A stretch of DNA of 64,000 bases from Anaerocolumna cellulosilytica (GTDB lineage Bacteria > Bacillota > Clostridia > Lachnospirales > Lachnospiraceae), in NCBI RefSeq assembly GCF_014218335.1, contig NZ_AP023367.1, forward strand, positions 697,001 to 761,000. The letters run 5' to 3'. The notes beneath the pieces were generated by a model that made no database searches, was not told where the DNA came from, and saw only the letters and a list, made by a program, of their open reading frames with translations. Of this stretch, positions 28,437 through 53,357 are shown in pieces; the stretch's first letter is position 1, and every line of letters starts with the position of its first letter. Position numbers and translations under genes: made by a program.

Positions 28437-31400
28437 ATGTATATACTTTTACAGAAAGCCAATGCTAAAAAGAAAGTGTTGATTTTTTTAACTGTTATGT
28501 TTCTAATACTTTTATATTTTGTACAGTTTCATTCTTCGAAAGTAACTTCGGCGTATACAATGTCAGAAGATACGGTAGTTCCCAAACCTGTAAAGTATGA
28601 TTCAACTGGTGCTACCACTTGGCCATGGGAGTATATGGCATATATGGTACAACCATATACATTAGGCATTTATGAAGGGAGAAATGGTTGGGATAAATTA
28701 TATGATGAAATCAAATGGTTAACTCCGGGTTATGATAACATTTCAAATTCTTCGCTGACTATTATCCCACATGATTTATGGAGGTCGGTACTCAAAAATC
28801 GGGATAATTACGTAGTTCAATTTGTACTTGGAAGTACAAAAATATTAAAGAGTAGCGAAAAAAAAGATTCAGTTCTATATATGAAAGGAATTAATACAGC
28901 GAATGAAACGTCTTCAAGTGTGAAAAATGGTGTATTTTACGATAAATTAAAAGATTTAAGTGATAAACAAATACTTGAAGTATATAAATCTTTAGCTCAG
29001 AATAAGACTAATAGAGATCTTTCAGAAGGAGTATGGTATTATTTTACTACTCCCCAAAATGGAAAATATACTATTGGTACAAAGATTGATGAGTATTTAC
29101 AAATAGAAAAGTTAGGAATAGATAAAAATGACATGGAAAAAGCATCTGATTTAAAATTAAAAGAATTATTTTATAGATATATTGATTTAATGTTAACATT
29201 ATATTCTCAAATAGCAAGTACAGATTCTATAGCTAAAAAGGCATGGGAAAGTGCAATAGAAAATTATATAACTTCAGAACCTATAGGTTCCAATAGTTCA
29301 AATGATAGAAGTGAAACCAATAGTCATATCTGTATTACAAATGCTATTGTAGGTTATACAAAAATAGAGAAGGCTGAAGGTGCATATATATTTTCTGCAC
29401 AAGATTACATAGAACGAATTTATAATATTCAAAAAGAAAAAAGTCTTACTTTTAAAGCAAATAAAGTTTTTGATATTGAGAAAGAAGACAAGTATTCAAT
29501 TTATGGTAAAGAATATTATCTTCGGTTGGAGGAAGTTATAAAGTCGAGTATAAAACAATACAAAGATGATAAGGTCTTAGAAAAACAAACCTATCCTTAT
29601 GAAGTGAGCGCCACAGCTTGGGGGACAGCCATTGTTTCAAGACTGTTACATAAATTACCATCAATTAATAAAAAAACTGCAACAATGGAATGGAAAACGG
29701 TGCACAATGATTTTAACTTTCAAGAGTATCTGTTATTAAGTAATGATTCTAAAAACTATGGAGTTATATTAGTACCAGCCTACTATACACAATCTCCTAT
29801 TAATCCTAAATACGATGCAAATCTATCAATCCGTACTACCTTAAAACCAACCAAATACATAGCTATTGCTGAAACTGGAACCAGTTCCAAAGTGGATTTT
29901 AAAGCTATTAAACGTACTGGTTCTATAGAGGAGAACAAATCCATTGGGGATACGCCAGAATTAATACTTAAATTAAACGGAAAAAAGACCGATGATGATT
30001 GGAAAGATTGGGAGAAATTAATTGATCGTTATGATAAGTTCGATTTAAAAATAAATATCACTAGAAGTGTGAAAGAAACATCAACAATAAAAGCAAAAAA
30101 AATAACCCTTAATCCAACTACCTATGTTATTAATAAGAAAGGTATTACGAAAGAAACATTAAAAACGTATTTAACAAATAAAGAAAATGTGGAACTTAAA
30201 TGGAGAGACACATCTATAGCTAATGTTATATTAGACCATGAAGAAGACATAAATTTTTATGATTATAAAGCGGATGTAACTATTTGGTATTATAAACAAA
30301 GTGAAGGAGTAGATGATAAGCAGAAGGTAGAAGCATCAACTAATAAAGTTGATATTACCTATACCAAAAAGACAGAAGTTATTCAGGATGGCACTTATGC
30401 TTCAAGTCCGGAGGCTTTCAGTGAGTTAAAGGACGGTACCATTTACCAGGAAGTTTTTGAAGCAATGGCAGGCGTTCCCTCAACCAGACCTTTATACTTT
30501 TCTGTGGGTGGCTCAGAATTTATTGCAGAACTACGGGTAGAGTATGCAGAGAATCAAACGGCCACAAGAACCTATAAAACCATTTTTGCAGGTACAGATT
30601 GTGAGTTTAAGAAAAATGATGCCTTAAAAGGAGGAGCCGGAACCTACAGTCATACGGAAACCTTTGTGGCAGATAATACCGGAAAGACAAATAGTAAAAG
30701 TGTGTTAGCGGAAAATTCGAATATCAAGACCCCGGACGGCAATCCATCAGCTAATTTTACAGTAAGCGGACATAACGCTTCAACGACCTTAACTGCTAAA
30801 TGGACAGGAAACATTAGCAATTCAACATCAGAGCCTTCGGATGCTGGTTTATTTAATGAAGGACAGGAAGGAAGTCAATGTGCAGGGAATGCTTTTCAAC
30901 CGGGAACCTTAAGAACAAAAGTGAAACCTTCCACGAACTGGGATGTAAATAGTTATAATACAGCACTTGAACAGGCAATAAGCTGGGCAGCAGGTATGGA
31001 AGCAACCAATGGAACTTATACTGTTCAAAGAATTGCTGACAGTGATGGGCAGATACGTCAGTACAAGGTAGGAGAGGCAGTGATAACAGTAGAGCTTTCA
31101 GGTGGTTCTAACAACCATACCAACACGGTTGTTAGAACTTACAGTGGCGGAATTTATACCTCCTCATCTGCCGCTGATGCAAGGCTTACTAATACAGATG
31201 AAGGAAAGCTTGGCAGCGGCTGGGGGTGGAGTGAAGGTAAGTTAGGGTATGGAACGGGGTATGTGGCAGGTTGTGGGCATGGTTGTACCAAGGAATGGGA
31301 TACGCCTCCTTCTAAAGATAATCCGGGCAAATCGCATTCCCATAACCATGTATGCGGTTCCTTTGTACCAGCAGTGGACTTAACGCAGGCAGCTTCGGGA

Positions 31401-34400
31401 ACCATTGGGTATACTATTATTGTAACCTTTAAAAATGGTAAAGTTATAAGTGGAGGCAATTATGATGGTGCTTTGGCCTTAACTGCGTCGGAAGTTAATG
31501 TTGGTGGTTCTTTGCCTGCTCATGCTCTGTGTGGTCCATGCTGTCAGCATGAATTGCCTTCAGTGGAGGATAACTGGTCCCAGGCGGTTACTTTTAATAC
31601 GCTACGAATTACGGATGTACATGTATGGAAAATAGAAAAGGGCTATGTAGGCGGTATGACGAAGATTCGAAGTGATGCTGCTGAATATGCAGATGCTATC
31701 ATACATCAGGGAAACCCAAATATTTTTTATAATATAGCAGCATCCTATAGTGGAAATGAGAATTCCACTATGTCCGGTCGAATTCGCTATTCTTTACAAA
31801 GAGAGCAAGGTGATTCTGTTGTTTGGAATGAAATGGTAGATGGTATGACTACAAGAAGTAAAAAATGCAATGGGCTGGCAGGTACCATAAGTGGTAGTAA
31901 TCCAATTAAAATAGCAGCGAATCAAGGACATAACAATAAATGGGCTTCCGGAATCTTATATACAAATCCTGCATCCTCTACGACGGTTGACTATCATAAA
32001 GAGAAAGCGGATGCAATTGATAAAAAAACGATAGAGTATGAAAGATTCAATATGAGGCGTAACTTAAAAAATACTGTTACGGTTGTTGCAGATATGTTAA
32101 TTTTACAAACCTCTAGTGGAGACCAGAGCTTATTGTACTATGCAGATAAGCAAACTAAGACAACGCAGCAGCAGTATGATGAGATAAAAACATCTTTTGA
32201 CAAGATGTGGACGGAAAATCCCAATGCAGCAAAGTATAATGGCAAGGACTTAGTAATAAATATCGGTTCTTATAATGGACAATATTATAATACATCAACA
32301 AAATATAAAGGAAGCGGTAAAGGGGAAAAAATAGATACCATTTATGATGCGGATTTAATATCAGCGGTAGTAAATGACAATACAGAGGCCGGAGAAACCA
32401 TAGGCCTTGCCAATACAGGTATGATGAGGATAGCCCAGTCATTTACGAAAGCGTCCGATGCTAACAAGTCAAGTCCCTCCCATAACCAGACAAGAATGCC
32501 AAGGGAAAAAGATTTACGTATCTATAATCCGGTAATTCAAAATCCAATCAATCCAAATGGGGAGTATGTCACGGGGCAGTCTTATACGTATTATAAGGAG
32601 CTGTTGATGTATGACTCCAGCGAATATCTAGACCCTATACACAAAAGTGAAAAAGATACAGTGTTGAATAGATATGGAATAACTTTGAAAAGCCGATATA
32701 GGGTTACAGATGAATCAGGCAAATGTAATGATATTGTGGTGCATGACCCGGTATCTGCAAGTGATGCAGTTATTGTGGCGAAACCACGTGAAGCAGATCA
32801 AAGAATTCAAAAATCTGCGTCATCTGCTCAGAGTTTGTTAAAGGAAATGGCGGAACTGGAAATCTGCCCCGGTACAGCAGCTCTTTGTGGCTTCCGTTAC
32901 TTAAACTGTCAGTTTGAAAAGGAAAGTTCTCTGGCAAGCTTTGATTTCGAAGTGGTGGATACATATCGGGATGAATCAGAATCTGCCACCGGAACGCCGA
33001 CGGGTTCAGAGGATGACAGAACAATTATAAGAAATATAATCAAATCAGGCAGCTCTTACAGGGATTATCCGTTAGGAGCAGGATTCGCCTTTTATAGAGA
33101 AGCAGGCAGCTTTCATGGATTTGGTTCAGGGAGATTTTTATCTGTGGATGGGATACGTACACAAATACCATTACAAGACTTTGGATTTTCGGGAAAAAGT
33201 TTAGAGCGTATCCGTGTGGAATGTAACCTATATATTCCATCTATATCTAATCGTGATCGAATGTTGTTTTCCTTTTCAGGGTATGGGTTTTATATTCCCG
33301 CAGGAAAGACCTATGGAGTTATTACTACGGGAAATGGAGAAGAACGTATAATGAGCGGAAACTTAATCGGCAGTCCTTTAAAATTTGGTCTAGTCATGAG
33401 CATGGGTTCAGTTACGGATTGTAATCTATACATGAATGATGTGCTACAGAGTGCCAGGACTAGTAGAAGTTCTAAGAATATTACAGATTCCTTAGTAGGT
33501 GATTTTTTAAACATCGGATGTTGGGAGTCTAATTCAGATTTTGCAACGGGATTTTATCTGGATAATTTAAAAATTATCCGTATGCCTGGTACCACTGAGC
33601 ATACAGATGCCTGTTATGTAACTACAACTATCCATGAAGCAACTCTCCAATATCTGCAAAAGGCATATGTGGTAAAAGATTTTGCCTATACCGGAACCGT
33701 TCAATCTTTTACTGCACCAGTAAGCGGGAATTATAAACTTGAAGTATGGGGGGCCAGTGGTGGTGATGGAATTAAGAATGACCAAGCCATAGGAAGCCAT
33801 GGAGGTCTTGGAGGATATTCCAGTGGTATGATATCTTTAAAGAAAGGGCAGACAGTTTTAATAAATGTAGGTGGTGCAGGTACCATGAGTACCGGACTAG
33901 GTACAGGTGGCGGCTATAACGGTGGAGGAAATGGAGGTAACTATGGATATGGAGGAGGAGGTGCAACAGATATCCGAGCAATAGATTCTCCTGTAACGAT
34001 AGCTTCTCTGGATTATTTCGAAGATAACGGCACCTTATCTGGTTCCGGACAACAGGTAAATGGATGGAATGATAGTGGTGAAGATAAAATAACATCTTAT
34101 GATACAGATACAGTTACTGTTAAGAAGATATGGTCTGATGGCTGGCTAACTCCGATGGGTGATAATCCCTTACTTAATGTAGATAGTAAATACATTGATA
34201 CGATAGAAATAAGGTTGAAAAATAATACAAATGGTTCCTTTATGCAGATTCATTATGCCATTAACGGTGAATGGCATAATGAACCGGAGTGTATTTATCT
34301 GGACGGTTCCAACATAATTAGTAAAAATGGTGATGGATTTGCGACCTACAGGGTTAAGATTACAGATAAAAACACTTCGTGGGGAAGTGGCAAAATAACA

Positions 34401-37400
34401 GGGCTGCGTCTAGATTTATGTAATAGCCCTTTAGGAACCAAATCAGGTAGCTACGTTCTTGATTATATCCGGTTTATTAATTCAACCGGAACCATAGGTA
34501 ATAATATTATCGCCAAAAACAGCAGTACTTCCATAGGAAAATTTTATGACGAAGCTGCATATGATGCCAATGTCTCAAGGCTAACTTTAAATAACGGTGA
34601 GCATGCTATTAAAGTAGCAAAAGGGGCCTATCATCAGGCAGCCTCTCTTCCTAATGTATTTACAGCGGGTCATCAGTATATGGTAGTTTTTGATGCCTGG
34701 TCAACAGAAGAGGGTGATGTGCTTCATATAGATGCGCATCCTGATACCTTGCCTGAAAAAATATTTGGATTGACAACAGAAAGAACCACATATTCCTTCT
34801 CAGTAACTTCTGACTTAGCGCAGATGAACAATGCTGCATTACGGTTCTTTGACAGTGGAGAGACACCAGAAGGGGATATGTATGTTACAAATATAAGAGT
34901 TTATGATGTAACAGCTGATTTTAGGAATCGCATTCTGGTAGCTGGAGGTGGAGGCGGAGCTGATGATTCCACCGGAGAAGCAGTTGGAGCGGTTAATGAT
35001 GGTTCAGGAGGTGCAGGTGGTGGTTTTAAAGGTGGCAATGCCTTCGCAGATGGTGTGAGAACCGCAGGAAAAGGAATTACTATTCCAGGCAGTGTAGAGG
35101 TCGGAAAAGAGTTTCCATATGATTATAGTGGTACCTCAAAGGCAGTGATTCTATCAGCGGGAAAATATAGGCTGGAGGTTTATGGAGCTCAAGGTGGTTC
35201 CGGTAATCGGGGTATCGGAGGCCTTGGAGGATATGCATCCGGTGAGATAACATTAACTACAGAAACAGAGGTAGTAATCAATATTGGTGGTATAGGGGAG
35301 GGCAGACAGCAGTCGGGATTTTATTCCAATGGTCCTAATGCAGGAGGTTATAATGGAGGTGGTGCGTCGGGAAGAGATACCGATTATAACGATAACGGTG
35401 TAAATGAATTAGGTGGAGGTGGTGGAGGTTATACCACAATTAAGATAAATGAAACAGCTATTGTAACCGGTGGCGGTGGTGGTGGGAATACCTATACTAA
35501 CAGTCCGGGAAGCAGAGGGACTGGAGGAGCCGGTGGTGGAAGTTATAACAGCCCTGGCACATCAGGTATACTGGCAGACTCCGGAGGCATCCCTATTGGT
35601 GGTGTATTTGCCAGAGAGTCAGAACTCTATAAAGCGACGGGTTATGTGAATGGAAGTTTGGCTGTTAATGGTAGTGTTCAGGAAGGGGTGCGGACAGGCA
35701 ATGGTTTTGCACTTATTACCTGCATTGGTACAGCAGAGGTAAATAATGGTGACCTAGATGCTGGTTTAGGTGGCACACAAATAAAAGGATATCAGACAGG
35801 TATTGGTGAAAGTGCCACTACAGATACGGATACCGGCGGAGGAGGAGGAGGCTATTATGGCGGTTATGCTACAAATTTCTATAACGGAGGAGCCGGAGGC
35901 GGTTCTGGTTATATTGGTGGTGTGACTGAAGGGATTACCATAGATGGAGATAGTGTCATACCATCCGTTTCTGGAGGTATAGGAACCGGACATATTGGGA
36001 ATGGATATGCCAGGATAACCTATTATGCAGCAGGCAGTGTAAAAGCTGACTGGCCATATGAGGTGTCTGAGAATAATATCCATATACCAACTATCAACTG
36101 CCTAACCGGAAGTTCCAAAGCGTTTACATTAAGCCTGACGGCCATGAATGGCGGAAACCTAACCGGAATGAAACAGTTACTGGGAGATACTCTGTGGAAT
36201 CAATTTGCGGCATACTTTGGAATCAAAAGTGGTATGACAGCGAATGTAACAAATGCAAGTGCTCTGTCATTTCTTAGAAACCACATGGAGGAAATTCCTT
36301 ATACTATTGGCGGCTTCATAAATCCTATTTGGGATTGCGACGGACTCTATAATGCACATGTTTGCACCGATAATTGTCGCACGGAAAGGGATCTTGACTG
36401 CCAGGAACCACACCATTACGGGCACCATTATGATTATAGCAATGAACTATGCTATAGTCCCTGTAATAATGATCATAATCATAAAAGCGGTCTGCATACG
36501 GTAAAGGATAAAACAGGCAGTGGTACCATTGCTATGGGAGACTATATCAACATTGACAACTATTTCCAGGTCTATTTTCCAAACCGTGGTGACTTTTATG
36601 AAACTACGGCATTCGGAATCCCAAGTACGATAAAAGAAAAAGGAAAAGGATATACAAACCGTATGGACACTACAGAATGGACCAGGGAGAAGTGGATACG
36701 TTTTGAGTTCTCTGTGCTATATAACCGGAACGGAACCTGGGAAGAGTATCTTACAGGTGAGTGGATTCCGTTGGAGGTAAGAGATTCTGAGGGTAGTATC
36801 ATTGAGTACTATGATTTTTACTGCTTATTAAGTAATGTGGAAGTACCTGCTGCAAGAGTTGATTTTCTTGTAGAAGCCATTAACAATAACCCATCCCCTG
36901 GTGGGCAGACCAACATATACCTGAGAGATAATGTAGTACGAAGTGATCTTCCCTCCTGGACTAATGAGTTTGTTAGAAACTTTATGAGAATAGGTAGTAA
37001 AAAGGCAGCTTACCACACAGCCTATAAATATACAGTAGTAGATTTGGTTGGGCGTATCGGTAACTTAATCGGAGAGGATACTGAAGATTTAAGGTTCAGC
37101 AATCTATTTAAAAGTACGGCAAAAACGCAGGGCTGGCTTATTGAAGGGATTCTAAAAAATGTCAATGCAGAGGTTTCGGATAAGTATTTATCCTGGCATT
37201 ATCATAATGGGACTTATGGAATGGATGTTAGGGGCAATACGGTGTCTAAGAAGAATGGAATGTATAATACCTATGGAACCCAGGGTTGGACTCAGAATGC
37301 AGGTGCAGTTCCTTTTCCTTTATCAGGAGATAAGAACACAGTGGCTGTTTTGAAAAATGAGAATCTAAAGCTTGGCTATAATTTGCTTATGGACATAACT

Positions 37401-38585: not shown

Positions 38586-39668
38586 TTGAGGCATATTAAA
38601 AAAGTACTATACAGTATCCCTTTTCTGGCATTGGTGTTATTATACATAACGCTGCCTGTTTCTGCAGCGACAACAGATGATTTAAGAGAATTAATAGGCA
38701 GCAGTAGAATAACGGACGAAGCTTATATTAAAGAAATGAAGCAAATTATATATTATTATAATTCAATGGAAAGAAAAGAACAGTTATTTGAATTAATGAA
38801 AGGACTGGGCAATGAAAAAGAAGCAAATGATTATGAGGAGTTATTAAAGAAAACGTCGGTAGCAGTGGATAAGCTTATAAAAGATTTTAAAGCTGCAAAA
38901 TCACAAGAGGTATTATTGGAAGATTATAATGATATTTATACTCTGTTAAAAAAAATAGATGCCGTGTCAGTAGCAAATACGATATCCCCGGCAATCTATA
39001 CAACAAATATAAAGGAGATAGAAGATTTATTTCGTTATGCTTTAAGTGTTAAAAATAGTATGGATGATAATACAGAGATAGGAATAATTGGTGAAGAGTT
39101 GTTACCCCCTTCCGGTAAGGATTTTCAGATACTGCGCTCTTTTGGTGAAAACAAAATTATACTAAGTAAACCAACTATAGAGACAAGTAATGGAATTACT
39201 ATGTCTGTACAAATGAATTCGCAAGTTTATTCTCAATTTAATGGTGTAGTTGAGAGTGTCCAAAAAACAGAAGATGGTTACAGGGTTGTAGTAACAACCG
39301 GAAAGTCCATTGAATGTACGTATAGTACTATAAGGAATGTAAAGGTAAAAAGTGGATCAAAAGTGAATCAATATGATGTAATAGGGACTGCAAGTAACAA
39401 TAATCTTTTGTTTAGTATTCAATTGAATACGGTATTCATAAATCCTTTATATTTATATGGCACAAAAGGAATAACAGCATATGAAAAATGGATGGCTGCA
39501 AATCCTGAAATGGTTGTCACTAGAGCGGATTTTTCCTATGTATTAAAAGATATTGCAGAAGAATTGGAATCTCAGCAGATATCATCAAGTATAGTGAATG
39601 ATGAAGGTGAGATATCAGAGATAATTTGGGAGGAAGGTTATGAAGCACCTAAAATGCCTGACAATTAA
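38586..39668 (+). CDS. Secreted protein with degenerate M23/LytM-like domain
   Basis: 360 residues from a TTG behind AAGGTG. A signal peptide spans ~8-27, then a helical region at ~30-170. A beta-rich domain at ~195-290 has the M23 peptidase pattern (VYSQFNGVVESVQ, then GYRVVVTTGKSIECTYS, VKVKSGSKVNQYDVIGTA and FINPLYLYG), but the HxxxD and HxH zinc ligands are missing. It is therefore probably a non-catalytic scaffold or wall-binding protein, like the inactive LytM regulators of other systems. It overlaps the next gene by 29 bases, so the two are translationally coupled. It opens the pilus operon. Confidence 0.7.
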   Translation: MRHIKKVLYSIPFLALVLLYITLPVSAATTDDLRELIGSSRITDEAYIKEMKQIIYYYNSMERKEQLFELMKGLGNEKEANDYEELLKKTSVAVDKLIKDFKAAKSQEVLLEDYNDIYTLLKKIDAVSVANTISPAIYTTNIKEIEDLFRYALSVKNSMDDNTEIGIIGEELLPPSGKDFQILRSFGENKIILSKPTIETSNGITMSVQMNSQVYSQFNGVVESVQKTEDGYRVVVTTGKSIECTYSTIRNVKVKSGSKVNQYDVIGTASNNNLLFSIQLNTVFINPLYLYGTKGITAYEKWMAANPEMVVTRADFSYVLKDIAEELESQQISSSIVNDEGEISEIIWEEGYEAPKMPDN

Positions 39669-40251: not shown

Positions 40252-40519
40252 TAAATGGAAAAGAAACGAATATACACCATGTTTGAGGCTTATCATAGTT
40301 ATGAGTTTTATATATAACGAACGGGCTAATGGTGTAGTAAAAAATAACTGTATAGAACCTATAAAAATATATGAATGATTCATTTTTAGTAAGAATCATT
40401 CATCATATTATACATAGTGATTTTTAAATAGGTAATAGGGAAATTATTTTTGAATTACATTCGTTGAAGATATTGTTTCCCAATTGTATAACATTTTTTT
40501 AGAGAAAGGAGCTATCCTT

Positions 40520-41437: not shown

Positions 41438-41504
41438 GTCAGATAATTTCTATATATGTTGCTGACACTTAAATGCAAAGAAATTTAGAGGAGTGGAGAT
41501 AAAT

Positions 41505-42128: not shown

Positions 42129-42233
42129 ATGAATGTTTGCGCTGCATAAGCGGCAGCATGAGAGGATGGTTGAATAAAAGATACAACCCCTTGATTAGTA
42201 TGCGACAAAAGTTCGCAGATGGGAGCTATAAAA

Positions 42234-43055: not shown

Positions 43056-45070
43056 TGAACATGGATAACCTGAAATTAATATTCATATCTTTGATTTGCA
43101 TCTTTACTCTTGTGTTCCTTTTATACTTGTATGCCAGAGGGAAAAAACAAGTAGTTGTAACAGAAGAATTATCCACATTTGAAGATGTTCTTGCAGCAAT
43201 TAAGTTATATATGGTAGATCTGGTGAAAGAAGATAATATTCAGGTAAAAACTCTTGAGGAATATCTTAAAATAAAGAAAATTAGAGCAAAAAATAAAGAT
43301 GCCTTAAAAAAAGCGGTATACGGAATCATCGGTGCCAAAGGCATGGTTCAGAGTTTAATCAGAGATTTTTTAAGACCTCGTCTTACACCGGAGCAAATAA
43401 GGCATATTCTTGGAATTGACGGAGAAAGTGATCCCGAAAAACATATAAAATTTGAAATAATTATGTTCCGTTACAAACAACTATATGATGTGGATGCGTT
43501 GGCAAAGTGGATACTCAAAAATAACTATCATCTACCAAAGCAAGCTCTTGGTCCGTCAGCAAAAAATACAACGGCCTACTACATAACAAAGGCAGATTTA
43601 GCAGATAGTTACTACAAAGAAAATATTACATTAAATGATAATGAAGTGTATGATTTATTTGCTATTCTTCTATTTCAAAAATATGTGGGCTGGGGTGATA
43701 TAGATACGATTACGGAGATGAATGTCAACGGTTATAATCTTGGGGTTTCGGGTTCTGTTATGAATGCAGTTAGTATCAGGCCTTCTATGGGGAAAAGTAA
43801 GCGAATTGACGGGTTCGGAGAAAGTGATGCACTAAATTCATTTTGGTTGTTTTTTCGTGGAGTATATATCCATTTTTTATTTCTTGAATTTAGCTCAGAG
43901 GATGAAATTAGGAGAATTATTCAATTGCTGGTTCGATACAATTCTCCAGGACCATTATCAGCAAAAAGAGGATACATTGTTAATTCTATGTACGATAAAT
44001 CCCGTATTTTAGCAATCAGACCGCCTGCGGGTGAATTCTGGGCGGCCTTTGTTAGAAAGTTCACTTTGGATAAGAATACTCCAATTGATCTTATCATAAA
44101 GCCTGGAATCCATAATGGTGAACTTCCGGTTAAATTCACTGAATTTTTAATGAAAGGAAAAGTTACTGCTGCAATCACAGGACGTCAGGGTACCGGTAAG
44201 ACCACATTTTTAAAAGCAATTGTTACCTATATAGATCCGAAATTAAATCTGCGTGTATTGGAAATGGCTCCGGAGATGTATTTAAGAGAGTTGTTTCCGG
44301 ACAGAAATATATTCTCTGTACATGAGATTAACACAGTATCCTTGGAAGAATGGCAGGATGCCTTTAAAAAATCCGATGCGGGAGTAACAATTATAGGTGA
44401 AATTGCTACAGATCCGGTGGCTGCAAGAGCAATACAACTTGCTATGACAGGATCTATCTTTACTATTTTTACACATCACGCAAATGAAGCAAAAGATCTG
44501 GTACTTACTCTTAGAAATTCTCTTGTAAATGCCGCTGGATTTGATAATATGACTACGGCGGAGCGTCAAGTGACAGAAGTACTAAAAATGAATATTCATT
44601 TTGATATAACACCTGACGGAAAACGTTATATTAAACGAATTACAGAAATTATTCAGATGGAAGAAAGCATTCCGTATCCTGAAATAGATCCATGCAATGT
44701 GGAATTAAGTCTTGCAAATGCTACGATTGAGCATTACCAGAGAACAACGGATCGTATATCCTTTGAAACGAGAGACTTACTTATATATGACCTGGAGAGT
44801 GATACCTATAGAGCAAAGGACCTGCCGAGTGATTACATGATACATAAAATTATGGAGGGGTTGCATAAGGAGGAGCGAAGCGAATTTAGTAAATTCTTAG
44901 ATTATTACTGGAAAGGTGTTTCAGCAGGGGGGTATACCGGAATCCATTATGATTACGAAACGGAACATAATAGTATGTTAACAGAAGATGATGTTTCAGA
45001 GGATGAAGCTTTAGAAAATATAAGTGCTTATTTAAGAAATAGATTTAATTTTGGAGATGATGAGGAGTAA
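43055..45070 (+). CDS. CpaF/TadA-type pilus assembly ATPase
   Basis: 671 residues. An N-terminal hydrophobic helix (~3-25, LKLIFISLICIFTLVFLLYL) is unusual for this family, which is normally cytosolic throughout. The core has the secretion ATPase motifs: Walker A GRQGTGKTT with Lys382, an Asp box region (LEMAPEMYLREL), Walker B GVTIIGEI and the His box FTHHANEAKDL near residue 470. This matches the TadA/VirB11-like ATPases that power type IV pilus and type II secretion. It is the motor of the locus. The start overlaps the CpaE-like gene by one base, so the two are coupled. Confidence 0.85.
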   Translation: MNMDNLKLIFISLICIFTLVFLLYLYARGKKQVVVTEELSTFEDVLAAIKLYMVDLVKEDNIQVKTLEEYLKIKKIRAKNKDALKKAVYGIIGAKGMVQSLIRDFLRPRLTPEQIRHILGIDGESDPEKHIKFEIIMFRYKQLYDVDALAKWILKNNYHLPKQALGPSAKNTTAYYITKADLADSYYKENITLNDNEVYDLFAILLFQKYVGWGDIDTITEMNVNGYNLGVSGSVMNAVSIRPSMGKSKRIDGFGESDALNSFWLFFRGVYIHFLFLEFSSEDEIRRIIQLLVRYNSPGPLSAKRGYIVNSMYDKSRILAIRPPAGEFWAAFVRKFTLDKNTPIDLIIKPGIHNGELPVKFTEFLMKGKVTAAITGRQGTGKTTFLKAIVTYIDPKLNLRVLEMAPEMYLRELFPDRNIFSVHEINTVSLEEWQDAFKKSDAGVTIIGEIATDPVAARAIQLAMTGSIFTIFTHHANEAKDLVLTLRNSLVNAAGFDNMTTAERQVTEVLKMNIHFDITPDGKRYIKRITEIIQMEESIPYPEIDPCNVELSLANATIEHYQRTTDRISFETRDLLIYDLESDTYRAKDLPSDYMIHKIMEGLHKEERSEFSKFLDYYWKGVSAGGYTGIHYDYETEHNSMLTEDDVSEDEALENISAYLRNRFNFGDDEE

Positions 45071-45147: not shown

Positions 45148-47148
45148 ATGAAAGAAATATTAATATATTTAACTCCCAATTCTATAATACTGTTACTTGC
45201 CTTGGTATTACTAATGGGGGCGGGTCTATTTTTAATGAAGGGCCCAAAAAATAGGAAGAGTTATCGTAAGACAGGGATATTTACAGCAATATACGATGAA
45301 TTGACAAAGCTTCCTATTGTAAAAAATTATGTAAAAAAGAAAACAATGCAGTTATCAGCTATGTCTGTTTATTCAAAAGAGGAAATAAAAAGCAAAGCCT
45401 CTCTCTATTTCATTATATCTTTTCTCACATTTGTGGTATCTTTGCTTGTTGGGATATTTATATATGATGATTATGTAAGCGTAGCGTTGGTAGGTGTAGG
45501 CGGGTATATAATCCCAACAATAGTGATAGAAAAAAATATAAAAAGGATGCATGGGATTGTAAGTTATCAGCTTAAATATGCAATCGAATCTTTAAGACTT
45601 GAATATCTAAAATGTAATGATGTTATTGAAGCACTTGAACATGTTGACTATGGCAAGAGGCTTACAAAAGCATTTTCTTCCTTGCATGAAATACTGACTT
45701 CTGCGGGTTCCGATACAAAAATAAAAGAATATAATGAATCAATCCCATTTATACATATGCAGACTCTTGCTCAAGTTTGTTACCATGTTAATAATACAGG
45801 AGATACATTTGATGAAAATGGATATTCATCCTTTGTTAATGCATTATTAATCATGATGAAAGATTTGAATGATGAAATCGGACGATTAACCTATCAAAAA
45901 ACAAAGTTCGGAAAGTTAGAATATCTGTGTCTGGTTGCTATTCCCGCCACAAAAGTAATGGAAGTATTCTTGTTATCCAGTATGCCCGGAACGGCTATTA
46001 TTTTAAAAGGCATATTAGGATATATATTTAAAATTATTATCATTGTTATAAGTTTGACAAGCTATACTTATGTAGCTAGGGCAAATAGTATGTCTTTTTT
46101 TAAAAATGATGACAGGAATATGATTTTAAATAGATTATTAAAAAGACGTCTAGTATTTTCCTTCGCAAAACAGATATCACCAAAAAATATGGTACGAGTT
46201 CAATTTGAACAAAAACTAAATGATGCGTTTTCTAAAAAATCTGTAGAAGAGTTCTATCTAGGAAAGGCTGTTTTATCATCAGCGATTTTTGTTTTCTCTA
46301 TGATATGTGTACTTAGCAGCATAAATATTGGAAGAGACTATATGAGAAACAATTCCGACTCCTTGTCTTTAATTAAAGAAAATCCCACTTATGAGTATGA
46401 CCATGATGATATTATTTCTATGGATAATTATTATATGCGCATGAGGGATAAAGGGTATATTTTTGAAAATGAAGAAATTAGAGTCCTAATAACAGATACA
46501 ATAACAGGTATAACTGATATGGATATAGAATCTCAAATATCCAGAATGAAAACAAAGTATGATTATTTAAGCAATCTCTATTTTAGATGGTGGTTTATCC
46601 CTATTTGTTTCTTACTCTCAATTGGAGTTTGGTTTATACCGAATAGGCGACTAAAGAAAAGAATTGAAATATTAAATATAGCTGCTGAAGAGGAATTCCT
46701 ACAGATTCAAACAATTACTACCATTTTAATGAGTATAAATTGTGACACCATGGAAGCAATCGGTTATCTGAGTGAATTAGTTACTATTCATAAAGATATG
46801 TTTCTTTATTGCTATTTGGGCTATGCATCAGATCCTGAAAAAGAATTAGATATCATGGAAATTAAAACACCTATTCAGGATTTTAAACGGTATATAAGAA
46901 AATTAAAGCTGACTATTAATGAATTATCTATGGAAGATGCATTTGCAGATTTAAAAATTGACCGGGAACATATCAGTCGTATGCGTGATGAAAAACTTCG
47001 AGATAATATCGACAGAAAACGAAATGAATGCGGTCTAATTACCAAAATAGGTTTATCTGCTGCAATTGTCCTCCTATTTGTATTTCCACTAATGTATATA
47101 GGTTATACCAACATGATGGATGGACTTAAAACCCTTCAAGGCTTATAA
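45148..47148 (+). CDS. TadB/TadC-like inner membrane platform protein (fused)
   Basis: 666 residues with hydrophobic helices near ~8-30, ~85-125, ~250-310, ~370-390, ~475-495 and ~630-655. Two homologous-looking halves, each with helices separated by a helical cytoplasmic stretch, fit the T2SSF fold twice over: ~1-330 as TadB and ~340-666 as TadC, which are usually two genes. It is 78 bases behind the ATPase. In Tad systems the pair forms the platform that the ATPase turns. Alternatively it is a single duplicated platform protein; the arrangement remains an inference. Confidence 0.7.
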   Translation: MKEILIYLTPNSIILLLALVLLMGAGLFLMKGPKNRKSYRKTGIFTAIYDELTKLPIVKNYVKKKTMQLSAMSVYSKEEIKSKASLYFIISFLTFVVSLLVGIFIYDDYVSVALVGVGGYIIPTIVIEKNIKRMHGIVSYQLKYAIESLRLEYLKCNDVIEALEHVDYGKRLTKAFSSLHEILTSAGSDTKIKEYNESIPFIHMQTLAQVCYHVNNTGDTFDENGYSSFVNALLIMMKDLNDEIGRLTYQKTKFGKLEYLCLVAIPATKVMEVFLLSSMPGTAIILKGILGYIFKIIIIVISLTSYTYVARANSMSFFKNDDRNMILNRLLKRRLVFSFAKQISPKNMVRVQFEQKLNDAFSKKSVEEFYLGKAVLSSAIFVFSMICVLSSINIGRDYMRNNSDSLSLIKENPTYEYDHDDIISMDNYYMRMRDKGYIFENEEIRVLITDTITGITDMDIESQISRMKTKYDYLSNLYFRWWFIPICFLLSIGVWFIPNRRLKKRIEILNIAAEEEFLQIQTITTILMSINCDTMEAIGYLSELVTIHKDMFLYCYLGYASDPEKELDIMEIKTPIQDFKRYIRKLKLTINELSMEDAFADLKIDREHISRMRDEKLRDNIDRKRNECGLITKIGLSAAIVLLFVFPLMYIGYTNMMDGLKTLQGL

Positions 47149-47339
47149 ATAAAGGGTTTAGCAGAAATATTATATTAAAAATATCTGTACAGAAATGATT
47201 AAGGAAGTGTGGTTAAATCACAAAAAACTTATATTATTTAACATAATAGTTTTGTAGGAGAAATTAAACGTATTTAGTTGTTTAAGTTCTCAACCCAAAA
47301 AATAAAATCCGTTAAACGGTGAAAAGGAGTGTGAAATCT

Positions 47340-47990
47340 ATGGCAGGTATCGGTGATGAAGGCATTGAGACATCGAAACTTGGAGCTGCGTTGTTCGCAT
47401 TTGGATTTTTTTTAGCTATCGCTATTATTATTTTCACAACTGGAAAAACGATTGCAAACAACGGTAGTGACAAAGTACAAAAGCAGTTGGAGATTCTCCA
47501 ATTGTCTGAGTTTACAGATTATGACCAGGCAGTAGTGTTAGGGAATAAGCTAAGGGCAGCATATGATGCTTTTGAAGGTAAGCCATATGCTGTAATCGTT
47601 GGGACTAGGAACCTTATCGATTGCCAAAGCATTAGCGGTATTGAATTTACCGGTGATAGTGATGATTTGGATATGCTGATTGAGACGGACATAACTACAA
47701 CAAATTCAGAGGGTAAAACCAATGCAACAGTTTATGGAATGAATTACAATGCATTACTTCCAAAAGATACAGAACTGGAAATGAAAAATGGAAGTTTCAT
47801 TACGACTTCTTCCTTTGCAGTTGATGACAAAACAGGTGCAATTAAGTTTAATAACGATATTGCCAATACCAAAAAGCAGGGTCGTACCGAATATATTGCC
47901 TCTGGAGCCAAATTCCAGTCAAATCTGATTAAAGATACTACAGGTGAAATTGTAGGTGTTTTTTTCTATCAGGTAGCATCCAACAATTAA
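47340..47990 (+). CDS. Pilin-like protein, probable major subunit
   Basis: 216 residues from the ATG at 47340 behind AAAAGGAG. The N-terminus MAGIGDEGIETSKLG followed by one hydrophobic helix (AALFAFGFFLAIAIIIFTTG) fits a short type-IV-pilin-like leader with G at position 5 and E at +5. A soluble C-terminal domain of ~170 residues follows. A terminator directly behind it (48006) and 190 bases of noncoding DNA ahead suggest separate, strong expression, as expected for a major pilin (inference). Confidence 0.65.
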   Translation: MAGIGDEGIETSKLGAALFAFGFFLAIAIIIFTTGKTIANNGSDKVQKQLEILQLSEFTDYDQAVVLGNKLRAAYDAFEGKPYAVIVGTRNLIDCQSISGIEFTGDSDDLDMLIETDITTTNSEGKTNATVYGMNYNALLPKDTELEMKNGSFITTSSFAVDDKTGAIKFNNDIANTKKQGRTEYIASGAKFQSNLIKDTTGEIVGVFFYQVASNN

Positions 47991-48005
47991 AAAGCCCCAA
48001 AGATT

Positions 48006-48243: not shown

Positions 48244-48756
48244 ATGGATAATGAAAATGTACAAGATATATTCGGGATAGCAATACAATTCATATTAATC
48301 GGTCTTTTTTTAACATTTTGCATATTTGCCTTCCACATAAGGTCTTCCTTTGCTGTTACAAGAAATGAACAGATAGATAGTACCAGAAAAATCCGAGAGG
48401 CCAGGCAATTCAGCAAATTCAAGCAGAATGAATGTACAGGACATTTATGTGATGGACATGTTTATGGTGATGATATCATAGAGTTGCTTCGGGAACATGC
48501 AGCAGGTGATTTAGAAATTTATATAAATAAAGTCTCTGAAACTGGTATAAGCCTTCGGCTTAATAGTGAAACATCAGTAAGAGAGGCCAATCTGTTTACC
48601 ACTAGTTCATTAAATACTCTTCTTAATACACAGTCAGAATTTCACCCCTATTTAATATATGATGGCGGAGATGTAACAAATTCAATCTATTATAATAAAA
48701 ATTCAACAGGACAAGTAACTGGTGTTGCATTTGTGTGGATATCAGATAATAAATAG
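48244..48756 (+). CDS. Pilin-like protein (2)
   Basis: 170 residues from an ATG behind GAAGGATT. MDNENVQDIFGIAIQFILIG leads into one hydrophobic helix, then a soluble domain with a VSETGISLRLNS strand and VYGDDIIELLREHAAGDL. The leader lacks the G|xxxxE pattern but keeps an Asp just ahead of the helix. It is probably a minor pilin or pseudopilin. It forms a transcription group with the next two genes, ended by the terminator at 49697. Confidence 0.6.
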   Translation: MDNENVQDIFGIAIQFILIGLFLTFCIFAFHIRSSFAVTRNEQIDSTRKIREARQFSKFKQNECTGHLCDGHVYGDDIIELLREHAAGDLEIYINKVSETGISLRLNSETSVREANLFTTSSLNTLLNTQSEFHPYLIYDGGDVTNSIYYNKNSTGQVTGVAFVWISDNK

Positions 48757-48766
48757 GAGAATTATC

Positions 48767-49225
48767 ATGAGATCGAATGAAGTTACGGATACATTGTCTT
48801 TAGGCAGTGAATTGATTCTTTTTACGTTGCTTTGTACCTTCCTTGCAATAGTTTCAATACAAGCTGGTAATATACGAAGTGCCAAGGAGCTGAAAGAAAA
48901 TACAATGATATCTGTCAGGGAAAAAAGTGAGTTGTATTATTATAAATATGCAGAACATGTTTCCGGTTCTGATATTGTAGAACTTATTATAAAAAACAAC
49001 AGTAAATACGATTACTATATCAAGTTATCTACTATAAATACCAATATAGAAATTACAAAAAGCAGAGCAAAAAAATTAATGGAGAAGGGTGAAAATAGTG
49101 AAATACTCTGGACCCAATCGTATCTTACTAACAATATTTTCGTTGAGCATATATATTCCTCCTATGATGTACGAATGCAAGAAGATAAGAATGGGGCTCT
49201 TTCCTTTTATTTTACAGAAAGGTGA
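48767..49225 (+). CDS. Pilin-like protein (3)
   Basis: 152 residues from the ATG at 48767 behind TAGGAG, ten bases after the previous gene ends. MRSNEVTDTLSLGSELILFT and one helix at ~13-33 begin the protein. The soluble part contains YAEHVSGSDIVELIIKNNS, which resembles the VYGDDIIELLREH block of pilin-like protein 2, so the two are paralogues. It overlaps the next gene by one base. Confidence 0.6.
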   Translation: MRSNEVTDTLSLGSELILFTLLCTFLAIVSIQAGNIRSAKELKENTMISVREKSELYYYKYAEHVSGSDIVELIIKNNSKYDYYIKLSTINTNIEITKSRAKKLMEKGENSEILWTQSYLTNNIFVEHIYSSYDVRMQEDKNGALSFYFTER

Positions 49226-49629
49226 TGAATGTGAATAAAGCAGGCGATACAGCAATGGATATGCTGAAGTTAGCGGTTGGTATTATATTTTTTGCAGCCA
49301 TGTTAGTCTTGGTAGTAAAATCAGCAAATGTTGGAACCGGAATGTTTCACACCAGCTACAATAAGCTTGATGAAGCCCAGTTAAAAGCAGATACCTGTAA
49401 TTTAGCTTCTTTAAAAAATACTACTATCAATATCCCAGGTGGTTCTGTATATGCCCTACTCGTATATAATGAAAAGAATATTGGTGAAATTATAAGCTAT
49501 CTTTACCCTGATAATGGTAAAAAGTATACTGTAAACGATAATCTTTTGGCTTTATTGAAAGGAGATATTAACATAACCGTGACCTTAAATAGCAATACAG
49601 GACTATATGATATAGTTCTTAAAAAATAA
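49225..49629 (+). CDS. Pilin-like protein (4)
   Basis: 134 residues. The N-terminus NKAGDTAMDMLKLAVG resembles IGDEGIETSKLG of the 47340 protein: G, then D, then an acidic residue at +5, ahead of one hydrophobic helix (IIFFAAMLVLVVKSA). The short soluble domain includes GGSVYALLVYNEKNIGEIIS. The ATG at 49225 overlaps the stop of the previous gene; a GTG at 49231 is an alternative with better spacing from GAAAGG. Confidence 0.6.
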   Translation: MNVNKAGDTAMDMLKLAVGIIFFAAMLVLVVKSANVGTGMFHTSYNKLDEAQLKADTCNLASLKNTTINIPGGSVYALLVYNEKNIGEIISYLYPDNGKKYTVNDNLLALLKGDINITVTLNSNTGLYDIVLKK

Positions 49630-49843: not shown

Positions 49844-50251
49844 ATGAAAAAAACAATCATTGAAATGTTAGATTTGGCACTTTTAACAGTAGTAATCAGT
49901 ATTATACTAATAAATGGATTATCTGTCTTATATCAATGTAATAGACAAGCTATAAACGCTTCAATCACAATAGCGGATAAAAATACGAATAAAAAGAACG
50001 GATTTGGGATCACTGAGTATGGAAATTATGATAATACATTAAACAAATATGAGATAGCCCTTATAGGATACATGAAAAGTAAGGAAGAAAATAAATCCTA
50101 TCAACTGACGATAAAAGAAAAGGATGTGAATTCTATGTATGAGATATGGAATCTGATTGGTGAAGATGCAGATGCAGCAAGATATTCAATAAAATATAAG
50201 TATAGAACAAAAAAATACAATATTATAAAGGAGGCGTATGAACCAAATTGA
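49844..50251 (+). CDS. Pilin-like or TadE-like protein (5)
   Basis: 135 residues from an ATG behind TTGGAG. MKKTIIEMLDLALLTVVI leads into one hydrophobic helix (~9-28); the rest is a soluble, charged domain (IALIGYMKSKEENKSYQLTI). The size and N-terminal helix fit a TadE-like minor pilin. It overlaps the next gene by four bases, so the two are coupled. Confidence 0.55.
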   Translation: MKKTIIEMLDLALLTVVISIILINGLSVLYQCNRQAINASITIADKNTNKKNGFGITEYGNYDNTLNKYEIALIGYMKSKEENKSYQLTIKEKDVNSMYEIWNLIGEDADAARYSIKYKYRTKKYNIIKEAYEPN

Positions 50252-50697
50252 AAGATGGGTTTATAGCAAGGGTAATCAGTCTGGTATTAATTATTATTAT
50301 GTTTATTATCTGCCCATATATCTATTCATACTCCATGACAGAATGGGAAAGTCGAAGAGTATTATTAAATGATGTTAGTAGCTTCCTAGATAAAGTAACT
50401 GATAAAAGAAGTATATCTCAAGATGATTTGAATGAATTTAGTTTACAGGTGGCATCCAGTGGCAAAATACTTAATATTAAAGTTGAAAGGTTAGTAAAGG
50501 TGTACACAAAAAGAAAAGATGGAACAATAAATATTACGTACATAGTAGCAGATAATAATTCAGAATTAAATCCAAGAGATATAGTAAGAGTATCACTTAA
50601 TGAAATAACTACTTCAACATACAGTAAAATAATGTCTACATTTTTAAAATTAAATGAAGATAACTATTCACTAACCATGTCAGCAACGGTTCGTTAA
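50248..50697 (+). CDS. TadE/TadF-like minor pilin protein (6)
   Basis: 149 residues from the TTG at 50248 with AGGAGGCG ten bases upstream. One N-terminal helix (VISLVLIIIMFIICPYIYSY) is followed by TEWESRRVLLNDVSSFLDKV and a soluble domain with a DLNEFSLQVASSGKILNIKV stretch. The one-helix, ~150-residue design fits TadE/TadF-like pseudopilins; no specific motif confirms it. The last codons run into the ribosome site of the next gene. Confidence 0.55.
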   Translation: MKDGFIARVISLVLIIIMFIICPYIYSYSMTEWESRRVLLNDVSSFLDKVTDKRSISQDDLNEFSLQVASSGKILNIKVERLVKVYTKRKDGTINITYIVADNNSELNPRDIVRVSLNEITTSTYSKIMSTFLKLNEDNYSLTMSATVR

Positions 50698-50709
50698 AGG
50701 AGGAAAGTA

Positions 50710-52017
50710 ATGAAAAAAAAAATCTACATATATATTTTAGTTTGTACCTTTGTATTTAGAATTATTTCACCGGCTTATATAAGTGCAAGTACTGTTTATT
50801 ATGATGAGTATGTTACAGTATCTTATGTATCTGACATTAGTGGCACATCTTTTCCCTCTACTAAGACCAGTTATCTCTGGGAAGGGGAACATATGGTGTA
50901 CAAATTTCAGCTATCTGAGCCAACAATAATTAAAGCATATTTTAGCTGGAGTCAAAGTGATGAAGTGCCGGGAGGAATAGCCTGGTTTTCAAAAGATATG
51001 TATGGGGTTGATATAATAGGTAATACGGCAGCAATCAGTTCTAAAAATAAATACAATCTTATATTATTAGAACCTGGAACGTATTATATCAATTATTCCT
51101 TTGGAAAAAGAGGTTCTTATAAGAATGCATATAATATTGGCTTATCTATCGCAGGACAAAAGGTTAATACGAATACTTTAGTATCTGCTTCCTCCTGGGA
51201 GAATCCCAATGTAATTAGGACTGATTTTTATTATGAGGGATTTCTAAGTAACTTACAACCATCAGCACATTATCTATTTTCAGTTAGCAGTAAAAGCTAT
51301 GTGACTATTGATTATCTCTTTAAACAGGTCGATAACTTAAAAGCAGATAGTGCCAAGTGTACACTGTATTATAGAAATGGAAGGGTTATAAAATCTCAAA
51401 AATATGACACTAGAGATACTTCAAAAAATAAAATAGCTGTGCTTCTTGAACCGGGAGATTATTACATTAATCTAAGCGATGCAACGGCTCCTACCAGCCT
51501 ATATGTAATTGCAGAACCAAGAACGAATACTTTGACGCAAAGTATTAAGCGCTATACCAACAAAGATGTTACAGTTTGGTTAGATTCCTCCTATGACCAT
51601 GAGAGAGCATTAATGGTTTCTTCCAAGGTTACAGATTCTAATATCCGTTCAAATACTGTATGGAAAACAAGCAGAAATGATACTTGTCTAGTAATAGAGG
51701 AAGATTTTTTTACGGTATCGGAAAATGGATGGTATACTGTCAGAACAGAGGATGAGAATGAAAATTATGTTATGACCACAATAAATATAACGAATATCGA
51801 TAAAGTTCCACCTACTACAAATATAGTTAACAATAAAACCTACACTTCCAAATCCATAACTATAAGATTTGATGATGATGTAAGCGGTGTAAAGTCAGCA
51901 AAACTAAACGGCAAAGTAATTAATTATGGTAAAGTAGTTAAAGCGAAGGGGAAATATAAATTAGTTATTACTGACCAGGCAGGTAATGCTAAAACAGTTG
52001 TATTTACTAAAAAATAA
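50710..52017 (+). CDS. Secreted PPC-like / Ig-like protein of the pilus locus
   Basis: 435 residues from an ATG whose upstream TTAAAGGAGGAAAGTA is the same as that of the giant gene. A signal peptide spans ~3-28. Two repeats resembling pre-peptidase C-terminal (PPC) beta domains follow (IILLEPGTYYINYSFGKRGS and LLEPGDYYINLSDATAP), then an Ig-like C-terminal domain (PPTTNIVNNKTYTSKSITIR, then a VYTDQAGNA-like end). It is exported and non-enzymatic as far as can be seen. It may be a tip or wall-spanning component. Confidence 0.7.
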   Translation: MKKKIYIYILVCTFVFRIISPAYISASTVYYDEYVTVSYVSDISGTSFPSTKTSYLWEGEHMVYKFQLSEPTIIKAYFSWSQSDEVPGGIAWFSKDMYGVDIIGNTAAISSKNKYNLILLEPGTYYINYSFGKRGSYKNAYNIGLSIAGQKVNTNTLVSASSWENPNVIRTDFYYEGFLSNLQPSAHYLFSVSSKSYVTIDYLFKQVDNLKADSAKCTLYYRNGRVIKSQKYDTRDTSKNKIAVLLEPGDYYINLSDATAPTSLYVIAEPRTNTLTQSIKRYTNKDVTVWLDSSYDHERALMVSSKVTDSNIRSNTVWKTSRNDTCLVIEEDFFTVSENGWYTVRTEDENENYVMTTINITNIDKVPPTTNIVNNKTYTSKSITIRFDDDVSGVKSAKLNGKVINYGKVVKAKGKYKLVITDQAGNAKTVVFTKK

Positions 52018-52050
52018 ATCCACAATAAAACTAAGAAAAGGAGGCGGCGT

Positions 52051-52059: not shown

Positions 52060-52083
52060 AACCCATACGTAGTATTTTAATAG

Positions 52084-53082
52084 ATGAAAACATGGTATAA
52101 CGTGTTTAATTTCTTAGGTGTAGCAGCTATATTAATTATGCTGTCTACCTATTATATTCAAATGGACTCTGTTCAGAAAGAATATGATACCGCAAGGTTA
52201 AACCAATGCTTAAAATATTCAACAGAAGCCGCCTTTCTTTCGGTTTTTAGCAGAGACAATCTTAGTATAAAGTATCAAGAAATGAATGATTTAAAACTAG
52301 AGCCGGGGAGCAGTCTGGATACTTTTAAAGATATGATTTGTTTAAATTATGGAATGGCTGTAAACGAAGAAAATAGAGAGTATATAGAAAATTGTATATC
52401 AGTGGCAATGCTTGCAAGTTCGGATGGTTATTACGTAACAGAACTAACAGAGATTAACTCCACAAATGGTCTGAATGGAGATGTTTACGGGTTGGTATGG
52501 AGTTCCAAACTACCATATACACTTGATATAGAAATTGGCATTGTTGGTTTAAATCTAGTGAATGAAAAGTGGTCTAAGGTAACGAAAAGTGGCAGCTCTA
52601 TAGTAGTAAAAGAAGGAGATAGGTATACTGATTTAGAAGTAAGCGCCTATATAAATCATAACATAAAAAAAAGAAGAATAAATTCTTTATTAACAGATGC
52701 TTTAACCTTTCAAGTAAATGCTGCCAGTGAGCTTCGTGGAGAGGTTGACTACAATTTTTATTTACCGCCAGTTCAGACGTTTTCAGGAATAAATGATATA
52801 AGTAATACAAGCCTTATTATCTTACTTGGAAATGCTGATTTTTCAGGCAGGGCAGTAAGCAATAATGTAACAATTGCAGGTCTTTCTGCCATAAGAAAAA
52901 TACGTGTGATATGTTATGAGGAGGACGGAAGAAAATACTATTGCTATGAAACCCAAATACCACAAGATTCATTTGGTCTAATAAAGATGTATTATGATAC
53001 CGCTATGGAAGCAGCAAAAGCAGGTTATGCGCCGGATTATCGATATATCTTTAATAAACAAACTTTGTCTATTGATAAGTAG
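52084..53082 (+). CDS. TadG-like minor pilin or anchor protein
   Basis: 332 residues. MKTWYNVFNFLGVAAILIML starts one anchor helix (~8-27), and the remaining ~300 residues are soluble and exported, with FLSVFSRDNLSIKYQEMNDL and VYGLVWSSKLPYTLDIEIGI as typical blocks. Its size and topology suit a TadG-like component at the end of Tad operons. The ATG at 52084 directly follows a stop codon and lacks a ribosome site; the strong site upstream serves a mini-ORF instead. It ends the operon ahead of the terminator at 53148. Confidence 0.6.
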   Translation: MKTWYNVFNFLGVAAILIMLSTYYIQMDSVQKEYDTARLNQCLKYSTEAAFLSVFSRDNLSIKYQEMNDLKLEPGSSLDTFKDMICLNYGMAVNEENREYIENCISVAMLASSDGYYVTELTEINSTNGLNGDVYGLVWSSKLPYTLDIEIGIVGLNLVNEKWSKVTKSGSSIVVKEGDRYTDLEVSAYINHNIKKRRINSLLTDALTFQVNAASELRGEVDYNFYLPPVQTFSGINDISNTSLIILLGNADFSGRAVSNNVTIAGLSAIRKIRVICYEEDGRKYYCYETQIPQDSFGLIKMYYDTAMEAAKAGYAPDYRYIFNKQTLSIDK

Positions 53083-53147
53083 AAGTTAAATAAATTGCAC
53101 TGGTAATAATATACTGAAAAATAATTACATTCAATAACATAAAAAGA

Positions 53148-53198
53148 TAACCATGACTTTCTGAGATTTTATTCGGCTTAGAGGCCATGGTTTTTTAT
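53148..53198 (+). terminator. Rho-independent terminator of the pilus operon
   Basis: AACCATGACTTTCTGAG and CTTAGAGGCCATGGTT pair with few mismatches, followed by TTTTTT. It closes the pilus locus 65 bases after its last gene. Confidence 0.75.
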
Positions 53199-53357
53199 TA
53201 AAAATCTTTGTATAGAAACCTGTTTTCATATTTTATTTGTCATAATATTAGAAATTGTTGTATAGAAACTGATTGTCATGTGTGCCACTTTTTATGAAGG
53301 CAGTATAATACTGATTGTTTATACAAGAAGAATAGCGAATGGAGGGGAATGGGGTAT

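What the first reader, a model, noticed from the sequence alone, without database searches (positions are those of the whole stretch)
28437..53200. Candidate undescribed system: giant secreted protein plus atypical Tad-type machine
Seen: 3,275-residue exported protein without wall anchor, then degenerate M23-like, CpaB-like, split or deviant CpaE-like, CpaF/TadA-like, fused TadB/TadC-like, at least five pilin-like and two larger exported proteins, closed by a terminator. Known: Tad systems build Flp pili and use TadA, TadB, TadC, TadZ, RcpC/CpaB and a prepilin peptidase. Inference: a Gram-positive pilus or secretion machine whose cargo or tip is the giant protein.
Basis: partly seen in the sequence, partly recalled or inferred. 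Interest (0 to 1): 0.8.

Follow-up and report, generated by a model that had tools for sequence, protein, structure and literature searches.

The report
Leaderless Tad-like machine with giant partner
A clostridial bacterium carries a distant cousin of the Tad pilus machine whose pilin-like proteins lack the usual processing signal, together with a giant exported protein whose tail domain travels with this machine across many related bacteria, and in close relatives both sit beside a toxin-exporting system.

Summary
Window 38586-53082 holds 15 same-strand genes: dead M23-like protein, exported 203-aa protein, CpaB-like, two ParA/TadZ-like proteins, CpaF-type ATPase, platform protein, six leaderless pilin-like proteins and two larger ones; the 3,275-aa protein lies just upstream. 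The machine belongs to a large Bacillota family, also on plasmids. The giant is no chance neighbour: its last ~570 residues match the C-terminal domain (CTD) of the DUF5704-type exported proteins of other clusters, and of 299 family genomes 35 have the CTD, 37 the ATPase and 34 both. In the genus (Anaerocolumna, inferred) window-type ATPase and giant occur in the same 5 of 15 genomes. The pilin-like proteins lack the prepilin-peptidase motif, and no such peptidase was found in the clusters. In four relatives a type VII secretion locus lies 13-16 kb from the ATPase; the window's genome has none. Leaderless tad-like loci (2011) and T7SS-Tad adjacency (2024) are in print; I found no report of the giant/CTD partner in nine searches. 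Function is inferred, not shown.

The parts
28437..38264 (+). giant exported protein, 3275 aa: conserved N-terminal region (about 1-1740), variable glycine-rich middle (about 1800-2600), conserved C-terminal part (about 2600-3275) ending in ..GTH
   Evidence: (ALK_LTK_GRD 5.4e-41)
36489..38261 (+). C-terminal domain (CTD) of the giant as aligned with the DUF5704-type exported proteins of other clusters
   Evidence: hhalign 97.7%, E 2.2e-12 over 430 columns, controls, alignment
38586..39668 (+). exported M23/LytM-like protein without catalytic histidines
   Evidence: Pfam M23 1.1e-9; residue check
39640..40251 (+). exported 203-aa protein of unknown function
   Evidence: phmmer homologue only in G099; genes of similar size stand at that place in the Anaerocolumna relatives
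40484..41437 (+). CpaB/RcpC-like protein (likely start ATG 40520)
41493..42128 (+). [not shown]
   Evidence: family profile against PDB: site-determining protein 2.6e-4
42219..43055 (+). [not shown]
   Evidence: profile matches in all 44 regions
43052..45070 (+). CpaF/TadA-type ATPase
45148..47148 (+). membrane platform protein, TadB-like N half; C half only positionally TadC-like
47319..47990 (+). leaderless pilin-like protein, PilA type (likely start ATG 47340)
48244..48756 (+). leaderless pilin-like protein
   Evidence: joins the iterated PilA profile
48722..49225 (+). leaderless pilin-like protein (likely start ATG 48767)
   Evidence: joins the iterated PilA profile
49222..49629 (+). leaderless pilin-like protein
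   Evidence: joins the iterated PilA profile
49844..50251 (+). leaderless pilin-like protein
50248..50697 (+). leaderless pilin-like protein, PilC type
50710..52017 (+). exported 435-aa protein
   Evidence: homologues in G099, G620, G622 and G631; no Pfam family above cut-off
52084..53082 (+). 332-aa minor-pilin-like protein, PilD type
   Evidence: profile in 33 of 44 regions
11748..13154 (+). exported Ig-like plus transglutaminase-like protein; its homologues stand directly before a giant in G620, G621, G622 and G631, here 15 kb upstream of it
14284..15222 (-). sigma-70-like factor with homologues near giants or machine in relatives
15826..16869 (+). membrane or exported protein with homologues beside machine or giants in five relatives
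53142..53199 (+). possible terminator (imperfect inverted repeat and T run)
   Evidence: the pattern scanner does not list it

Best explanation
The locus encodes a Tad-like machine of the type IV filament superfamily, of a separate Bacillota lineage. Shown: the gene set, its conservation, the N-termini without a prepilin motif, and the tie between machine and giant. Inferred: the CpaF-type ATPase and the platform protein pull pilin-like proteins, inserted by their unprocessed N-terminal helix, into a short filament or pseudopilus, perhaps through a wall passage shaped by the CpaB-like and dead M23-like proteins. The giant leaves by Sec (signal peptide) and is caught by its C-terminal domain at the filament or its base, so that the conserved N-terminal scaffold and variable glycine-rich middle face other cells or surfaces. 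Its likeliest use is contact with target cells or a matrix; in close relatives a T7SS exporter is coded beside it, so contact for toxin delivery is the preferred, unproven purpose.
Against: The window's genome has no EssC above cut-off, so a T7SS cannot be required; the EssC association within the genus is modest (4 of 5 against 1 of 10, p 0.017), and only 3 of 80 named loci have a T7SS ATPase within their 10-kb flanks. CTD matches occur without an ATPase match in G014 (family) and in G383, G390, G571 and a degenerate G536 (class); 9 of 23 strong ATPase genomes of the class lack a CTD match. The window's giant is in the CTD profile, so its own genome counts as self. The TadC half is not shown. 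The pilin model has mean pLDDT 68, 70 of 223 residues under 50; structure of the CTD and any fold comparison could not be run. A peptidase coded elsewhere could still act. No filament has been seen.
Confidence: 0.45

Rival explanations
1. Ordinary Tad/Flp-like adhesion pilus in a diverged form, with the giant as a separate Sec-exported adhesin that merely shares regulation or habitat.
For: CpaF, CpaB and TadZ-like parts; the same genome has a canonical Tad locus with peptidases, Flp, TadE and TadF; three plasmid clusters end with an SLH or stalk-domain protein, a DUF5704 protein and a diguanylate cyclase, which fits surface attachment.
Against: CTD and machine co-occur across 299 genomes even when not on one contig; leader peptides missing and no peptidase found in the clusters.
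Confidence: 0.3
2. A secretion (pseudopilus) machine that pushes the CTD protein through the wall, like a type II secretion piston, with no long filament.
For: A large CTD protein accompanies most of the machines in the family, its C-terminal end is conserved to the last residues, several minor-pilin-like proteins and a dead M23-like protein are present.
Against: Monoderm cells have no outer membrane to cross (general knowledge); the giant already has a Sec-type signal; CTD proteins exist without an ATPase match.
Confidence: 0.15
3. A conjugation pilus: the machine serves plasmid transfer.
For: ATPase relatives on 25 plasmid records, some near relaxase-like and coupling-protein genes.
Against: Plasmid pTHECO01, whose annotation was read end to end, has its own conjugation-type genes (TcpE family protein, conjugal transfer protein, ATP-binding protein); I noticed no transfer gene among the window's genes listed, though no search was made for them.
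Confidence: 0.04

Closest known systems
Tad/Flp (type IVc) pilus system
   Same: CpaF-type ATPase, CpaB/RcpC-like, TadZ-like, TadB-like half of the platform, one-locus organisation
   Different: no Flp pilin, no class III leader peptides, no prepilin peptidase found in the locus, one platform gene instead of two, a dedicated giant CTD protein
Gram-positive tad-like loci without prepilin motif (Imam et al. 2011, PMC3244431; section 12 and passages read)
   Same: Clostridia loci with distant tad genes and no protein with an apparent prepilin motif
   Different: they report tadV in those loci, none was found here; no large exported partner is mentioned in the parts read; whether it is the same group was not tested
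T7SSg, T7SSh and T7SSf of Garrett et al. 2024 (PMC11217815; abstract, sections 10, 11, 13, 15 and passages read)
   Same: T7SS core next to Tad genes (g, h); FHA-bearing ATPase and a TadZ-like component (f)
   Different: in the relatives here the T7SS ATPase of G099 has an FHA domain and lies next to the window-type machine and giants; giants, CTD or leaderless pilins are not mentioned in the parts read, and the authors call the link unclear; the window strain has no T7SS ATPase above cut-off
Myxococcus Kil system (PMC12075869; passages read)
   Same: Tad-like pilus with exchangeable tip proteins used in contact killing beside another secretion-type apparatus
   Different: Kil tip pilins carry prepilin sites and are minor pilins; here the candidate tip is a Sec-exported giant; no killing shown
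DUF5704-containing exported proteins (PF18964)
   Same: share the C-terminal domain with the giant
   Different: the giant shows no DUF5704 domain and is about three times as long

Membership tests
Tad/Flp pilus | TadA/CpaF ATPase | tested here: met
   TIGR03819 6.5e-8 for the window protein (far below that model's cut-off); family profile hits CpaF structures first, 2.3e-21
Tad/Flp pilus | TadB and TadC platform proteins | tested here: inconclusive
   N half to TadB 81.7%, C half to TadC at most 4.5%; control TadB to TadC 93.4%; no T2SSF among the families matched by 24 members
Tad/Flp pilus | TadZ | tested here: inconclusive
   [not shown]
Tad/Flp pilus | RcpC/CpaB | tested here: met
   window protein homologous to a SAF-domain protein of pTHECO01; no direct Pfam hit
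Tad/Flp pilus | pilins with class III leader | tested here: not met
   0 of 7 window pilin-like proteins; 2 of 153 PilA
Tad/Flp pilus | TadV-type prepilin peptidase in the locus | tested here: not met
   Pfam search of the own genome: five copies, none in the window; home-made profile: none in 80 named loci and 44 regions; 28 of 29 genomes have one somewhere
Partner protein family (CTD) | conserved C-terminal domain to the last residue | tested here: met
DUF5704 family | DUF5704 domain | tested here: not met
   not among Pfam matches up to E 1
T7SS-linked Tad loci (T7SSg/h) | T7SS ATPase beside the Tad genes | tested here: not met
   window genome has only a below-cut-off match in a 962-aa frame; met in G099, G620, G622, G631
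Imam 2011 'no Flp' tad-like group iii | phylogenetic placement with the loci of C. bolteae, C. kluyveri and others | not tested
   those named loci were not identified among the genomes fetched

The most novel reading that the evidence does not exclude
A monoderm contact weapon: a filament machine that builds with unprocessed, leaderless pilins presents a giant target-binding protein, and this assembly is the cell-contact half of a toxin-delivery apparatus whose exporter is a T7SS in relatives and, in the window strain, possibly the contractile-injection-like locus just upstream.
Probability: 0.17. Interest if true: 0.88.

Novelty: new variant of a known kind. Interest (0 to 1): 0.6.

Why it matters
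The passages read treat prepilin processing as required for filament assembly; a widespread family whose pilin-like proteins lack the site would change that rule or show a way round it. The CTD gives a simple genetic handle (large exported protein plus machine) to ask what monoderm Tad-like machines carry, and the T7SS linkage in close relatives makes a question left open in the 2024 T7SS survey, whether the neighbouring Tad genes matter, testable.
Full report
What is there. The window lies at 697001-761000 of a one-contig 5.43-Mb genome. A same-genus genome, G620, has the contig length (6,817,888) and ATPase position of Anaerocolumna sp. AGMB13025 (L120, NZ_CP121445.1), so the genus is taken to be Anaerocolumna; this is an inference. 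The 3,275-codon frame is well started. It has a Sec-type N-terminus, no LPxTG near its end, and one Pfam family, the ALK/LTK glycine-rich domain (5.4e-41). From 38586 to 53082 run the 15 same-strand genes listed under parts.

Leaderless pilins. Many PilA proteins begin like MENASKALIIAGA, directly followed by the membrane helix. A class III motif (G, A or S, then E at +5 in a hydrophobic run) is met by 2 of 153 PilA, 0 of 70 PilC and 4 of 64 PilD proteins of the named loci and by none of the seven in the window, against Flp, TadE and TadF (3 of 4 tested) of the same genome's canonical Tad locus. A peptidase A24 profile trained on the five copies of this genome finds none in the 80 named loci and 44 regions; its positive control is those same copies. 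Peptidases exist somewhere in 28 of 29 genomes holding 30 of the named loci and five times in this genome, none in the window. So processing by a peptidase coded elsewhere is not excluded; the missing site is the stronger argument. The alignment-based model of the first pilin (mean pLDDT 68) has a helix 14-66 and later strands, with a poorly modelled stretch between; fold comparison was switched off.

The giant belongs to the machine. Four of the five plasmid clusters read end in an exported protein annotated with DUF5704; its homologues form a group with members in 17 regions. Profile comparison aligns giant residues 2704-3275 to the last 450 positions of that family: 97.7%, E 2.2e-12, 430 columns, 18% identity. 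Reversed giants, the first two thirds of the giant, and the s435 and M23 proteins give 5.0% or less against both halves of the family; a C-terminal piece of the giant alone gives 91%. In the alignment with 10 named proteins identity is 23-26% with many invariant residues, and the last residues match: TH in 10 of 17 family proteins, 9 of 10 full-length named ones (SH in the tenth) and 10 of 10 giant frames that reach the C-terminus. One plasmid, pCY186, codes N- and C-terminal halves as separate genes.

Co-occurrence. The CTD profile (which contains the window's own sequence) matches 35 of 299 family genomes, 34 of them among the 37 with the ATPase; G014 has only the CTD, G199, G259 and G285 only the ATPase, though G285 has a CTD-like gene by another profile. 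In 291 class genomes 18 have the CTD, 23 a strong ATPase match and 14 both; CTD-only are G383, G390, G571 and a degenerate G536, ATPase-only nine. In G571 and G383 the CTD protein lies among WXG100- and LXG-like genes (read by eye). In the genus the window-type ATPase (57-59% identity in the four relatives) and the giant are in the same 5 of 15 genomes; of the other ten, nine have only a 31-48% identical ATPase (some in fragments) and G618 none. The four relatives also have a second, 33-34% identical ATPase. Without the window's genome this is 4 of 4 against 0 of 10, one in 1001 by counting. None of these tests corrects for kinship.

Giants are modular. Eleven frames from six genomes were compared: residues about 1-1740 of the window giant align in 6-9 and 2600-3275 in 9 of 10 others, the glycine-rich 1800-2600 in 0-3. 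G631 has three giants, G622 two, G621 two (one in two frames), G620 one, 650 kb from its machine. In G622 a leucine-rich-repeat protein and a deaminase-toxin-like protein stand beside the second giant.

Linkage to type VII secretion. In G099 an EssC-like ATPase (FHA plus FtsK domains), a YukD-like protein (26.3 bits, cut-off 27), WXG100 and a kinase-LRR protein lie between giant and machine, the ATPase 16 kb from CpaF. In G620, G622 and G631 an EssC above the TIGR03928 cut-off lies 13-14 kb downstream of CpaF; in G621 it is on another contig. Among the 15 genus genomes EssC passes the cut-off in 5: four of the five with window-type machines, and G617 (p 0.017). The six window-type ATPases form one clade (support 1.0) with L122, a Vallitaleaceae genome, as sister (1.0), which also has an EssC-like gene nearby, on the other strand. 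Three arrangements of the same partners argue for a functional tie; the window genome without EssC, and only 3 of 80 named loci with one in reach, argue that it is not obligatory.

Literature. Nine searches of the open PMC library found no paper holding 'DUF5704' and, from 2024 on, only PMC11217815 holding two or more of T7SSg, T7SSh, Tad pilus and type VII secretion. PMC3244431 (section 12 and passages) describes Gram-positive tad-like loci without prepilin motifs. PMC11217815 states that T7SSg and T7SSh lie beside Tad genes and that the link is unclear. PMC12075869 (passages) gives the Kil precedent. PMC6668835 (passages) notes that a system may use a prepilin peptidase of another system. 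PMC9673590 (passages) was looked at for plasmid conjugation and gave nothing on Tad genes.

Verdict. A new variant of the Tad-like kind with a dedicated giant partner. Membership in canonical Tad fails on two tested features (leader peptides, peptidase in the locus), while 'works like a Tad-type filament machine' stands as the likeliest reading. The role in contact or toxin delivery is inference from neighbours.

Noticed in passing
G000:C1 about 672465-697000 (L116, L104) and window 1-11500: A gene set that looks like a contractile injection system: DUF4280 PAAR-like protein (7.9e-15), repeated VgrG-like proteins with variable ends (Phage_GPD 2.8e-4, under cut-off) and small two-helix membrane genes; sheath and tube readings are by eye and PHROGs did not support them.
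   Followed up: partly
window 4876-6026 and 21634-22784 (-): Two copies of the same two-gene insertion element (205 and 97 aa), identical in protein sequence as listed.
   Followed up: no
window 19997-26594: Repeated DUF6273/Ig-like exported proteins; a shorter similar one at 22825-23645 is in two frames.
   Followed up: no
G000:C1 58894-69495 (L102): A separate canonical clostridial Tad locus in the same genome, with two A24 peptidases and genes read as CpaE, CpaF, TadB, TadC, Flp, TadE and TadF.
   Followed up: partly
L245 and L254 (G622): Deaminase-toxin-like (1.3e-28) and CdiA_C-like (9.1e-17) proteins beside the second giant and in the T7SS locus.
   Followed up: partly
L123:5886-7316 and similar-sized genes before CpaB in other named loci: Ser/Thr kinase (6.1e-45) joined to what reads like a ParA domain, a possible regulator of the machine.
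   Followed up: partly
L210-L212 (G571), L213 (G383): CTD proteins among WXG100/LXG-like genes without the machine in the stretch read; the G571 one shows no N-terminal membrane helix.
   Followed up: partly
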